Shown one piece after another: positions 44,702 through 50,728 of a stretch of 64,000 bases of DNA. How positions within the stretch are numbered: the stretch's first letter is position 1; every line of letters starts with the position of its first letter. The position numbers and the translations under genes were made by a program. Source of the DNA: Anaerotruncus massiliensis (ex Togo et al. 2026) (GTDB lineage: Bacteria > Bacillota > Clostridia > Oscillospirales > Ruminococcaceae); assembly GCF_900199635.1 (NCBI RefSeq), contig NZ_LT962687.1:1597501-1661500 (forward strand), written 5' to 3'. The notes beneath the pieces were generated by a model. It searched no databases, had not been told where the DNA came from, and saw only the letters and a program-made list of their open reading frames with translations.

Positions 44702-44730
44702 TTGCCAATTCCGCCCACCCGTGCTATAAT
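44702..44730 (+). promoter_or_regulatory. Promoter of the [FeFe]-hydrogenase maturation operon
   Basis: TTGCCA (44702-44707), 17 bases and a perfect TATAAT (44725-44730). The first gene starts 220 bases further on, leaving a long untranslated leader. Confidence 0.78.
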
Positions 44731-44736
44731 GTTGCC

Positions 44737-44949
44737 AACGGGAAATATCCGGTACAATTTCATCGCCTGCGTCCAAGGGGGCTCCCGCGGATCAAGGCTT
44801 TTCAGGCAAATCGTTCTAAAGCGCGCGGGTTCGGCCCGGCGGAGAAGGCGGTGGTATTTTTGTGCTGCAAACGCGGCGCCGCGCCTTTGGGGACGCGGCG
44901 CTTTTTTTGGCGGCGGAGACGCGGCCGCTTCGGAAAGGAAGGCTGACGG
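44737..44949 (+). ncRNA. Structured leader with terminator before the hyd maturation genes
   Basis: The 329 bases between the GNAT and TM1266-like genes contain no convincing coding region. About 213 of them would be transcribed as a leader ending in an intrinsic terminator. Upstream of that are shorter hairpins such as CGGG-TTCGG-CCCG (around 44827-44839) and segments complementary to one terminator arm, as needed for an antiterminator. I could not match it to any riboswitch or T-box consensus that I know. It is a candidate ligand- or protein-controlled attenuator. Confidence 0.55.
44876..44908 (+). terminator. Leader terminator (attenuator) of the hyd maturation operon
   Basis: An 8-bp GC stem (GCGCCGCG / CGCGGCGC, 44876-44901) with a 10-base loop is followed by seven T (44902-44908). 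It ends 41 bases before the first start codon and lies between promoter and genes, so it should act as an attenuator. Confidence 0.8.
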
Positions 44950-45219
44950 ATGGAAACAAGAATCGCCCTGATCGGCATCATCGTGGAGGACATGCGGGCG
45001 GCGGACCGGCTCAACGCCATCCTGCACGAATTCGCGGGCTGCATCGTCGGACGGATGGGCATCCCCTACCACGCGAAAGACGTCAGCATCATCAGCGTGG
45101 TCGTCGACGCGCCGAACAACGTGATCAGCTCCCTTTCGGGCAAGCTCGGGATGCTCCCCGGCGTCAGCATCAAGACGGTCTATTCCAAGGCAGGAGGTCC
45201 CCCGCATGACGCTGAATGA
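44950..45219 (+). CDS. TM1266-like iron-only hydrogenase system regulator
   Basis: 89-residue ACT/NikR-C-like small protein of the family named after TM1266 and annotated as an iron-only hydrogenase system putative regulator. It begins METRIALIGIIVEDMRAADR and has the family stretch IPYHAKDVSIISVVVDAP and GKLGMLPGVSIKTVYSK. There is no DNA-binding domain visible. It overlaps hydE by 14 bases. Its constant partnership with hydE/hydG suggests a sensory or regulatory role in H-cluster synthesis, but this is unproven. Confidence 0.92.
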   Translation: METRIALIGIIVEDMRAADRLNAILHEFAGCIVGRMGIPYHAKDVSIISVVVDAPNNVISSLSGKLGMLPGVSIKTVYSKAGGPPHDAE

Positions 45220-46171
45220 CACGGTTTCCGGGCTGGCAGGGCTTCTCACTTTACAGGACTTCTCCCCCGTCTACCGCGAGGCCGACCGGGTCCGTCGGGA
45301 GGCGGTCGGGGACGTGGTGCACATCCGCGCCATCCTCGAATTCTCCAACCACTGCAGGCGGCAGTGCCGCTATTGCGGGCTCAACAGCAGGAACGCGGCC
45401 TGCGACCGCTACCGCATGACGCCGGAGGAGATGGTTGATTCCGCCCGCGCCGCCTGGGAGGCGGGCTACAAAACGATCGTGCTCCAGTCGGGCGAGGACC
45501 CGTTTTTTACCTCCGCGCTGCTCGGGGAGATCGTCCGGGAGATCAAGCGGACGGGACTGGCGGTGACGGTGAGCTGCGGCGAGATGCCGCGGGAGGACTA
45601 CGCGCACCTGCGGGCGTGCGGGGCCGACCGCTACCTGCTCAAGCACGAGACCGCCGACCCCGTCCTCTATGATTCGCTGCACCCCTGCGGCACCCTCTCC
45701 GAGCGGGTCGCCTGCCTGAAAACCCTCAAGGCCCTCGGGTTCGAGACGGGCAGCGGGTTCATGATCGGGCTGCCCGGCCAGACGAACGAGACGGTCGCGC
45801 GCGACCTGCTGCTGCTGCGCGAGATCGGCTGCGACATGGCGGGCATCGGGCCCTTCATCCCCCACCCGGACACGCCGCTGCGGGACCTGCCGCACGGGAG
45901 CACCGAGCTCACCAAGCGGGCGGTCGCGCTCGCGCGGCTGCTGCTGCCGAAGGCGAACCTGCCCGCCACCACCTCCCTCGGGGTGATCGACGGGAAGGAA
46001 AAAAACGACGTCTTCTCCTGCGGGGCGAACGTCATCATGCGCAAGGTGACGCCCGACGCCTACAAGCAGAAATATGAAATCTATCCCGCCGCGCTCGGAC
46101 ATACCGATATCAAGGCCGAGCGCGCCGAGCTGGAAAATATGATCCGCGGTCTGGGAAAAATACCGCAGTAA
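45206..46171 (+). CDS. hydE: [FeFe]-hydrogenase H-cluster maturase HydE
   Basis: Radical SAM enzyme acting with HydG and HydF to build the diiron subcluster. 321 residues, slightly shorter than the best-known HydE. The cluster motif is CRRQCRYCG near residue 50, within LEFSNHCRRQCRYCGLN. GEDPFFT and GSGFMIGLPGQTNE are typical of the HydE/BioB-like barrel. It overlaps the TM1266-like gene and lies 11 bases before hydG. Confidence 0.96.
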   Translation: MTLNDTVSGLAGLLTLQDFSPVYREADRVRREAVGDVVHIRAILEFSNHCRRQCRYCGLNSRNAACDRYRMTPEEMVDSARAAWEAGYKTIVLQSGEDPFFTSALLGEIVREIKRTGLAVTVSCGEMPREDYAHLRACGADRYLLKHETADPVLYDSLHPCGTLSERVACLKTLKALGFETGSGFMIGLPGQTNETVARDLLLLREIGCDMAGIGPFIPHPDTPLRDLPHGSTELTKRAVALARLLLPKANLPATTSLGVIDGKEKNDVFSCGANVIMRKVTPDAYKQKYEIYPAALGHTDIKAERAELENMIRGLGKIPQ

Positions 46172-49044: not shown

Positions 49045-49108
49045 GTATCTCAAAGGCTTAGCGCCTTTTCTTGTGCTGCAAGAATGTTTAATATGGGAGA
49101 GGATTAAA

Positions 49109-49918
49109 ATGAAAAGAGTACTTGCTCTCGTTTTGGCGACCCTGATGCTGCTCGCGGCCGCGGGCTGCGGCTCCAAGCCCGCCGAGGAGAAGACCTTCAC
49201 GATCGGCATGGAGTGCGCCTACGCCCCCTTCAACTGGACCCAGCTCGAAAAGACCGACACCGCCGTCGACATCGGCAACGCCTCCTACGCGGACGGCTAC
49301 GACGTCGTCATGGGCAAATACATCGCCGAGAAGCTCGGCCGCACCCTGGTCGTCAAGCCGATCGCCTGGGAGGGCCTCGAGCCCGCCGTCAACAACGGCG
49401 AGATCGACGCGATCATCGCGGGCATGACCGCCACCCCCGAGCGGAAACAGAACGTCGACTTCACCACCCCCTACTATGAGAGCAAGATGGTCGTCATCGT
49501 CCGCAAGGACAGCGACCTGGCCGGCATCACCGACATCCAACAGCTCTCCGGCCGCAAGGTCCAGGGCCAGCTCAACACCATCTACGACGACGTCATCGAT
49601 CAGATCGACGGGGTCGACCACGTCACCCCGCTCGCGACCTACCCGCTGATGGTCGTCGCGCTCCAGAACGGCGAGGTCGACGCGCTGACCGCCGAGCTGC
49701 CCGTGGCGGTCGGCGTCACCAGCAGCAACTCCGACTTGACCTACGTCGAGTTCGACGCGGACAAGGGCTTTGAGGCCGACACCTCCGTTTCAATCGCGGT
49801 CAAGAAGGGCAACACCGAGCTGCTCGACGAGATCCAGAAGGCGCTCGACAGCATCACCGAGGAGACCCGCCAGCAGTGGATGATCGAAGCGACCGGGCGC
49901 CAGCCTGCGCAGGAATGA
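49109..49918 (+). CDS. Amino-acid ABC transporter substrate-binding lipoprotein
   Basis: Extracellular solute-binding protein family 3, 269 residues. The lipoprotein signal MKRVLALVLATLMLLAAAGC precedes the binding domain, which shows FTIGMECAYAPFNWTQ, GLEPAVNNGEIDAIIAGMTATPERKQ (core EIDAIIAGMT) and FTTPYYESKMVVIV. GAGAGG lies just before the ATG at 49109. It is first in a binding protein-permease-ATPase operon. A polar amino acid or a related amine is the expected ligand; which one is unknown. Confidence 0.93.
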   Translation: MKRVLALVLATLMLLAAAGCGSKPAEEKTFTIGMECAYAPFNWTQLEKTDTAVDIGNASYADGYDVVMGKYIAEKLGRTLVVKPIAWEGLEPAVNNGEIDAIIAGMTATPERKQNVDFTTPYYESKMVVIVRKDSDLAGITDIQQLSGRKVQGQLNTIYDDVIDQIDGVDHVTPLATYPLMVVALQNGEVDALTAELPVAVGVTSSNSDLTYVEFDADKGFEADTSVSIAVKKGNTELLDEIQKALDSITEETRQQWMIEATGRQPAQE

Positions 49919-49966
49919 TCCACGGCGCACGCCGTCCGAAAGTACGAAAGATAGGATTGTGTGACC

Positions 49967-50728
49967 ATGTTTGCATCTGCAATTGATATCGCCGTCAAAT
50001 ACTGGCCGATGTTCTGGGCCGGCATCAAGACGACCCTGCTTCTGTCCATCACCGGCACCGTCATCGGCCTGCTGATCGGCCTGGTCGTCGGCAGCGTGCG
50101 GTCGGTCTGCTCCAAAAGCGAGTCGCGGGATTCCGGCGTCGCCAAGGCGGTCAAAAAGATCGTCTATTTCATCACCTGCGTCTATGTGGAGTTCTTCCGC
50201 GGCACCCCGATGATGGTGCAGGCGGTCTTCCTCTACTACGGCCTCAAGCCGGTCTTCAACTGGGACACCACCGTCGCCGGCATCTGCATCATCTCGATCA
50301 ATACCGGCGCCTACATGGCGGAGATCCTGCGCTCCGGGCTCCAGTCGGTCGACGTCGGCCAGACCGAGGCCGCGCGCAGCATCGGCATGACCCCCGCGCA
50401 GACGATGTTCCACGTCGTGCTGCCGCAGGGCGTCAAAAACGCCTTCCCCGCCATCGGCAACGAGTTCGTCGTCAACATCAAGGACTCCTCGGTGCTCAAC
50501 GCCATCTCGGTGACCGAGCTGTTCTTCCAGTCCAACAAGATCGCGGGCAGCATCTTCAAGTTCACCGACACCTTCCTCGTGACCGCGCTGGTCTATCTGG
50601 TGCTCACCTTTACGACCACCCGCATCCTGCGCGCGATCGAAATCCGCATGCACCGCCCGCCCTCCAGCTATCCGACCTCGCAAACGGTGCCCGAGGCGCG
50701 CATCAAACCGGAAGGAGGGGCGCAGTGA
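49967..50728 (+). CDS. Amino-acid ABC transporter permease
   Basis: His/Glu/Gln/Arg/opine-type permease, 253 residues, with about five helices. [39 protein letters not shown] (core [10 protein letters not shown]) and the EAA loop [22 protein letters not shown] are diagnostic. I chose ATG 49967; a GTG at 49961 is an alternative, as AGGA spacing does not decide. Its stop overlaps the ATPase start (TGATG). Confidence 0.94.

What the first reader, a model, noticed from the sequence alone, without database searches (positions are those of the whole stretch)
44731..44949. Long structured leader with an attenuator ahead of TM1266-hydE-hydG-hydF
Seen: a clean promoter (44702-44730), then 219 bases without a gene, ending in a GC stem with seven T (44876-44908) just 41 bases before the first start codon. 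A terminator between promoter and operon means expression is conditional. I compared it by eye with the SAM, THF, cobalamin, TPP, glycine, fluoride and T-box consensus and found no match. Inference: a riboswitch or protein-controlled attenuator for H-cluster synthesis, perhaps sensing an H-cluster precursor, iron or tyrosine/SAM status, possibly via the small TM1266-like protein.
Basis: partly seen in the sequence, partly recalled or inferred. Interest (0 to 1): 0.75.

Follow-up and report, generated by a model that had tools for sequence, protein, structure and literature searches.

The report
RNA switch for hydrogenase cofactor genes
The stretch of RNA ahead of the genes that build the metal core of an iron hydrogenase carries a previously unlisted folded element that seems to decide whether transcription continues; it recurs in many anaerobic bacteria, also ahead of an importer found mostly in species that have the hydrogenase but lack the builder genes we tested.

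Summary
In detail: promoter 44702-44730, gene-free leader, GC terminator plus seven T (44875-44908), 41 nt before TM1266-hydE-hydG-hydF.

The leader belongs to a widespread RNA family without an Rfam match: a hairpin with two symmetric 2x2 GA internal loops around a ~4-bp helix (strand CUGA-N4-RAAGG, used twice). All 7 modelled pairs show compensatory changes in 67 units. The window's copy is 44765-44798 (21.6 bits). The unit's 3' strand also complements its own terminator's 5' arm; so hairpin = OFF, antiterminator = ON (polarity inferred).

Units also precede hydE or hydG without TM1266, an SsuA/NMT1-type ABC importer, and FecCD and ECF genes. All 75 accepted RNA-bearing genomes encode TM1266; 10 lack HydE. 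TM1266 folds like the NikR sensor domain.

Unexpected: HydA without HydE and HydG is common here, and the importer is in 35 of 40 such genomes against 6 of 29 with HydE. Boldest reading: import of an H-cluster precursor. Sensor and ligand are not shown.

The parts
44702..44730 (+). sigma-70-type promoter, TTGCCA-17-TATAAT, extended -10
44765..44798 (+). unit 1: hairpin GCCU[GC]GUCC[AA]GGG..CCC[GC]GGAU[CA]AGGC with two 2x2 internal loops
   Evidence: R2 match 44767-44798, 21.6 bits, next best in 7 kb 10.1 bits; 44762-44800 folds alone as the consensus, -16.9 kcal/mol
44816..44848 (+). unit 2, degenerate (CUAA...GGGuucggCCC...AAGG)
   Evidence: by eye; not matched by the model; corresponds to the second copy seen by eye in L006, L039, L118. 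Weak
44845..44855 (+). switch strand AAGGCGGUGGU: unit 2 3' side or antiterminator 5' strand
   Evidence: 10-bp duplex with 44878-44887, -13.8 kcal/mol; 2 of 64 terminator arms of other leaders pair better with it
44875..44908 (+). intrinsic terminator; 44878-44887 is also the antiterminator 3' strand
44950..45219 (+). TM1266 family protein (PF21699, TIGR03959), NikR-sensor-like fold
45206..46171 (+). hydE
   Evidence: TIGR03956 298.7 bits
46183..47601 (+). hydG
   Evidence: TIGR03955 925.9 bits
47675..48868 (+). hydF
   Evidence: TIGR03918 540.5 bits

Best explanation
The leader is a transcription attenuator of a new RNA family. Shown by comparison: a conserved hairpin ('twin-GA hairpin') with two symmetric GA internal loops lies upstream of an intrinsic terminator, and the hairpin's 3' strand (AAGG plus variable bases) is complementary to that leader's own terminator arm. 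Inferred: when the hairpin is stabilised the AAGG strand is occupied, the terminator forms and TM1266-hydEGF is switched off; otherwise AAGG captures the terminator arm and the operon is read. Inferred, less sure: the hairpin is stabilised by the TM1266 protein, acting in cis and in trans, loaded with a signal of H-cluster cofactor supply, so that biosynthesis (hydEGF) and import (ABC, perhaps ECF or FecCD) answer to the same cofactor.
For: Covariation: 96.6% of cells paired against 68.6% shuffled, 7 of 7 pairs with double changes (67 of 500 shuffles reach 7 of 7), score 0.754 against 0.217 and at most 0.145 when slid (alignment fitted to the model); in the 11-sequence seed 6 of 7 pairs, 0.722 against 0.221. 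Terminators: 60 of 66 unit leaders at score 20 or more against 7 of 330 shuffles; own antiterminator pairing -10.02 against -7.53 (sd 0.28) for swapped terminators, 0 of 10000; 34 dissimilar leaders -9.88 against -7.47 (sd 0.41), 0 of 10000. TM1266 link: 75 of 75 accepted RNA-bearing genomes encode TM1266 and 65 encode HydE; without HydE, RNA in 10 of 29 TM1266+ against 0 of 191 TM1266- genomes (raw, false positives kept: 6 of 191). In the order set the 12 fetched regions with a unit before hydE, hydG or the importer and no TM1266 gene in front are all from genomes with a TM1266 match elsewhere (G162 only at E 2.4e-15). Of 40 importer-bearing TM1266- genomes 39 have no R2 match at E 0.1 and G165 has one at E 0.08 on another contig; several have a Crp/Fnr-like gene before the importer.
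Against: No binding data. R1 and R2 were built from TM1266 leaders, which biases them towards TM1266 genomes, and I dropped 10 genomes as false positives after the fact. R2 is not sensitive: the window's genome gives no match at E 0.1 genome-wide, and 102 of 167 TM1266+ HydE+ genomes have no accepted match. TM1266 proteins are not consistently basic (pI 5.7-9.5). Unit 2 of the window is degenerate. For the whole window leader the MFE prefers another inter-unit pairing. OFF polarity is read from geometry only.
Confidence: 0.5

Rival explanations
1. A true riboswitch: the twin-GA hairpin, alone or in tandem, binds a small molecule or metal directly, and TM1266 is only a regulated gene in the same cofactor system.
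For: A regulon of biosynthesis plus transport genes is the usual riboswitch pattern. Some leaders carry two copies, which recalls tandem aptamers. Units lie before genes that are not next to TM1266 (L280, L281, L284, L286, L300, L302, L282, L288).
Against: Few conserved bases beyond the two loops; the co-occurrence with TM1266, also where HydE is missing, is unexplained; the same importer without TM1266 shows no R2 match at it.
Confidence: 0.3
2. A fixed attenuator: a terminator that merely lowers operon expression, the hairpin serving RNA stability or pausing, with no signal.
For: Terminators are very frequent behind the units (60 of 66).
Against: A fixed terminator needs neither conserved loop bases nor matching of the unit's 3' strand to each terminator.
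Confidence: 0.1
3. Leader-peptide (ribosome) attenuation, or control by a tRNA (T-box).
For: The arrangement promoter-leader-terminator-biosynthetic operon is compatible.
Against: No Rfam T-box match. I saw no conserved short ORF in the printed leaders (by eye, some output was cut, no formal scan). The conserved part is a hairpin with paired covariation.
Confidence: 0.04

Closest known systems
RAT antiterminators of BglG/LicT/SacY (recalled, no call)
   Same: About 30-nt hairpin with two similar internal loops, next to an intrinsic terminator; a small dimeric protein is the expected partner.
   Different: There the protein-bound hairpin prevents termination by overlapping the terminator; here the hairpin is predicted to permit it. 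The genes read downstream are hyd and transport genes, not PTS genes.
Guanidine-II riboswitch (passages read in PMC9481103)
   Same: Simple, pseudo-symmetric; two hairpin copies, which some of our leaders also have.
   Different: Guanidine-II pockets form between the tetraloops of two hairpins; here the conserved bases are in internal loops. No Rfam match.
Moco/Wco riboswitches (passage in PMC9481103: tandem Wco RNAs upstream of hydrogenase genes)
   Same: Metal-cofactor control near hydrogenase genes.
   Different: No Rfam match.
NikR C-terminal sensor domain
   Same: The TM1266 model and 2nzc share its fold.
   Different: No DNA-binding domain (89 aa) and no conserved Cys in the family alignment.
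PqqT, TauA, SsuA-type binding proteins
   Same: Fold of the co-regulated binding protein; PqqT binds a redox cofactor.
   Different: 14-20% identity among the best matches, ligand unknown; below the curated SsuA_fam cut-off.

Membership tests
Any Rfam 15 family | score at or above the gathering threshold | tested here: not met
   window 0 matches; 32 loci holding relatives: only a 5S rRNA in L112
Twin-GA hairpin family (this work) | match to model R2 built from 67 units | tested here: met
   44767-44798, 21.6 bits, E 1.1e-4 in 7 kb, next best 10.1 bits; but no match genome-wide at E 0.1
Twin-GA hairpin family (this work) | downstream terminator whose 5' arm complements the unit's 3' strand | tested here: met
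   -13.8 kcal/mol, 2 of 64 foreign arms pair better; the strand is that of the degenerate unit 2, not of unit 1
Riboswitch | direct binding of a ligand by the RNA | not testable with these tools
   needs in-line probing or in vitro transcription
Protein-controlled (RAT-like) attenuator | a protein binds the hairpin | not testable with these tools
   only co-occurrence
TM1266 family (TIGR03959, PF21699) | score above curated cut-off | tested here: met
   113.9 against 60.8 bits; 110.8 against 27
NikR | ribbon-helix-helix DNA-binding domain with nickel site | tested here: not met
   89-aa protein, single sensor-like domain; no conserved Cys in A1; nickel binding not tested
T-box leader | Rfam T-box match | tested here: not met

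The most novel reading that the evidence does not exclude
H-cluster cofactor economy: many bacteria of this order make [FeFe]-hydrogenase but not its cofactor, and import an H-cluster precursor (a [2Fe] or mono-iron carbonyl-cyanide complex) made by neighbours, through an SsuA/PqqT-like ABC importer. The twin-GA RNA with TM1266 as sensor regulates both supply routes, synthesis by HydEGF and import, as cobalamin riboswitches do for B12.
Probability: 0.3. Interest if true: 0.95.

Novelty: new variant of a known kind. Interest (0 to 1): 0.82.

Why it matters
It gives [FeFe]-hydrogenase maturation a concrete, testable genetic control, proposes a role for the TM1266 protein (deposited as uncharacterized), and offers an RNA handle for finding other genes of H-cluster supply. 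That handle already led to an importer that is largely exclusive with HydE, which makes the question 'how do bacteria with HydA but without HydE and HydG fill the enzyme?' directly testable. Hydrogen production matters in gut communities (PMC12578642, abstract start seen; it names the group B enzyme, not the group A enzyme counted here, as the main source).

Tried and rejected
Known riboswitches and T-box by Rfam: no match. Free-form descriptor of the unit: too loose at low scores (at score 20, 55.7% of leaders against 4.6% of shuffles), replaced by covariance models. Two units as the defining form: only 16 of the 228 leaders have two units at score 20, so this is described, not required; some leaders (L007, L013, L014, L070, L101, L106) look circularly permuted by eye. 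'HydA without HydE marks TM1266 scavengers': rejected as first put, because 69 of 80 HydE- TM1266- genomes also have HydA. The Ser variant TSCSPGW in HydA as a sign of dead enzymes: rejected, since the window's genome, which has HydEFG, has it too. TM1266-HydE fusion in G053/G073: not supported on checking open frames. Accepted RNA set: I dropped 10 of the 85 genomes with R2 matches at E 0.1 (G320, G415, G039, G372, G396, G113, G349, G165, G225, G070) as coding or unsupported; G349, G165 and G225 were dropped without reading the region; six of the ten lack TM1266. G422 and G423 were kept although their downstream genes were not read. Raw figures are given as well. Literature: ten searches; judged by titles and abstract starts, none of the listed papers is on this RNA or on HydA without maturases. 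Word look-ups only: PMC12578642 and PMC6776011 (no mention of maturation or HydE), PMC8924675, PMC9481103. The 2017 list of 224 RNA motifs (recalled) is not held and was not checked.

Full report
Check of the observation. TTGCCA-17-TATAAT at 44702-44730 matches 11 of 12 consensus bases. The terminator is a 44875-44902 stem followed by T7, -22.0 kcal/mol. The ATG of the TM1266 gene is at 44950; TM1266, HydE, HydG and HydF all pass their curated cut-offs. The window lies in an unnamed 3.1-Mb genome; the same-genus genome G004 has the contig length of the Anaerotruncus colihominis DSM 17241 chromosome and the same 200 nt upstream of TM1266 (L006 and L033).

A conserved RNA unit. Leaders upstream of TM1266 relatives were collected from close relatives, named genomes and the order: 228 distinct entries, of which some show no leader element. 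Comparison by eye showed a repeated pattern, strand 5'-CUGA-N4-RAAGG-3' used twice in one hairpin: outer helix, 2x2 loop (GA facing RA), about 4 bp, 2x2 loop (RA facing GA), inner helix, variable apical loop. A model from 11 hairpins (R1) gave 78 matches at E below 0.05 in three searches, seed sequences included; 73 lie on the coding strand within about 370 nt of TM1266, and five do not (L005 some 850 nt upstream; L079, L083, L090 and a second match in L110, not followed up). On the 67-sequence alignment A7 all 7 pairs show compensatory changes, covariation score 0.754 against 0.217 for shuffles and at most 0.145 for slid partners; this alignment was fitted to the model. The seed, aligned by MAFFT, gives 6 of 7 pairs and 0.722 against 0.221; its sequences were chosen with a structural descriptor. 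In the window the model R2 matches 44767-44798 with 21.6 bits, 11 bits above anything else in 7 kb, and 44765-44798 folds alone into the consensus. The second unit (44816-44848) is degenerate.

The switch. In 66 unit-bearing leaders, 60 have a terminator of score 20 or more between unit and start codon, against 7 of 330 shuffles. The 3' strand of the unit (AAGG and the next bases) pairs better with its own terminator arm than with those of other leaders: -10.02 against -7.53 (sd 0.28) in 64 leaders, and -9.88 against -7.47 (sd 0.41) in 34 mutually dissimilar ones, no permutation of 10000 as good. In the window AAGGCGGUGGU (44845-44855) forms 10 bp with 44878-44887 inside the terminator arm, -13.8 kcal/mol. 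So hairpin and antiterminator compete for AAGG, antiterminator and terminator compete for the arm, and a stabilised hairpin should mean OFF. Polarity is inferred.

Regulon. R2 was searched in 394 genomes of the order (85 with a match at E 0.1) and 328 of the phylum (16 at E 0.01; three matching sites there look coding or are undecided in other ways, see below). Of 40 fetched regions not obviously at a known TM1266 gene, 14 precede TM1266, 7 precede hydE (L297 with a small ORF between; positions agree), 2 a GNAT gene followed by hydG (L272, L277; hydG by eye), 1 hydG-hydF (L275; HydG 619 bits; hydF by eye), 2 the ABC importer alone (L282, L288), 1 an iron-type binding protein (L278, doubtful), 2 are at contig ends, and 11 are coding or unsupported matches. 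In the phylum set 17 of 19 matching sites were read (the other two, in G066 and G049, are TM1266 leaders): besides TM1266 they include hydE (L313-L315, by eye), hydG (L318, by eye), a FecCD permease (L310), an ECF S component after TM1266 (L320, L321; L321 slightly under the Pfam cut-off) and without it (L324, just over); L323 and L327 look coding, L322 and L326 are undecided.

TM1266. All 75 accepted RNA-bearing genomes encode TM1266; 10 of them lack HydE. Among genomes without HydE, RNA is in 10 of 29 with TM1266 and 0 of 191 without (raw 6 of 191, Fisher 1.6e-6). Among HydE+ genomes it is 65 of 167 with and 0 of 7 without TM1266 (p 0.047). Part of this is by construction, since the models come from TM1266 leaders, and the exclusion of ten genomes was my judgement. 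The window's TM1266 is predicted with pLDDT 91.5 and matches 2nzc and then NikR sensor domains. I therefore favour TM1266 as the trans-acting reader of the hairpin, with a riboswitch as the main rival.

Import hypothesis. HydE was counted at E 1e-60. Of the 29 TM1266+ HydE- genomes 26 were tested: 17 have HydA above cut-off, none has HydG above cut-off, and none of the 24 tested has HydF; the three HydE+ controls have all. In 16 of 19 such TM1266 loci read the next gene is an SsuA/NMT1-like binding protein (mostly by eye, with examples). The control changed the picture: 69 of 80 HydE- TM1266- genomes (of 191; taken alternately by handle) also have HydA, and 0 of those 69 has HydG above cut-off (3 of 4 HydE+ controls do, G066 does not, so HydG can be missing or missed in a HydE+ genome). 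HydF was not tested in them. The binding protein (profile A8, E 1e-25) is in 35 of 40 of these HydA+ HydE- TM1266- genomes (40 of the 69; G144 and G221 only as fragments), in 5 of 11 HydA- HydE- TM1266- and in 6 of 29 HydE+ TM1266+ genomes (Fisher 2e-8; stratified by family CMH chi-square 19.0, though family f14 shows no clear difference, 4 of 5 against 4 of 6). That 5 of 11 genomes without HydA also have it shows that the importer is not tied to this hydrogenase alone. The importer operon lies beside or within about 3 kb of the HydA operon in G392 (L380), G254 (L367), G327 (L369) and G246 (L368); in others, such as G192 and G334, it does not. In 18 of 18 HydA loci read from HydE- genomes the three H-cluster motifs are present, with a TSCSPGW variant in some that the window's genome shares. 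Several of these genomes are nearly closed (G192 one contig, G334 and G347 two, G254 three; G347 lacks the importer). The binding protein's nearest solved folds include TauA, SsuA, thiamin and PQQ binders. Import of an H-cluster precursor fits all this, but other substrates, unknown maturases or correlated lifestyle could too.

Known or new. No Rfam family matches. Ten literature searches listed nothing on this RNA or on HydA without maturases (see Tried and rejected); the library lacks most subscription papers. Verdict: a real, new attenuator RNA family for H-cluster supply; sensor and ligand open.

Noticed in passing
G handles of the order set; L367-L393: [FeFe]-hydrogenase HydA without HydE and HydG is common in this order (69 of 80 HydE- TM1266- genomes tested have HydA). 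How it is matured is unknown.
   Followed up: partly
window 49106-50728: An amino-acid-type ABC binding protein (SBP_bac_3) and a permease-like ORF follow hydF directly; possibly cysteine or tyrosine supply.
   Followed up: no
L348, L349, L351, L352, L364, L366, L367, L369: In TM1266- genomes the importer is often preceded by a Crp/Fnr-like regulator gene (L348 and L367 by Pfam; the others by eye).
   Followed up: partly
L298, L299 (G070): Two near-identical unit-like elements followed by terminators in a genome without TM1266, not next to recognised hyd genes; perhaps a mobile element.
   Followed up: no
L328, L329: TM1266 followed by a D-lactate-dehydrogenase-like gene (by eye) instead of hyd or transport genes.
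   Followed up: no
L083:1407-1451, L090:3237-3267, L110:4246-4278, L079:4246-4278 (-): R1 matches away from the TM1266 leader; downstream genes not read.
   Followed up: no
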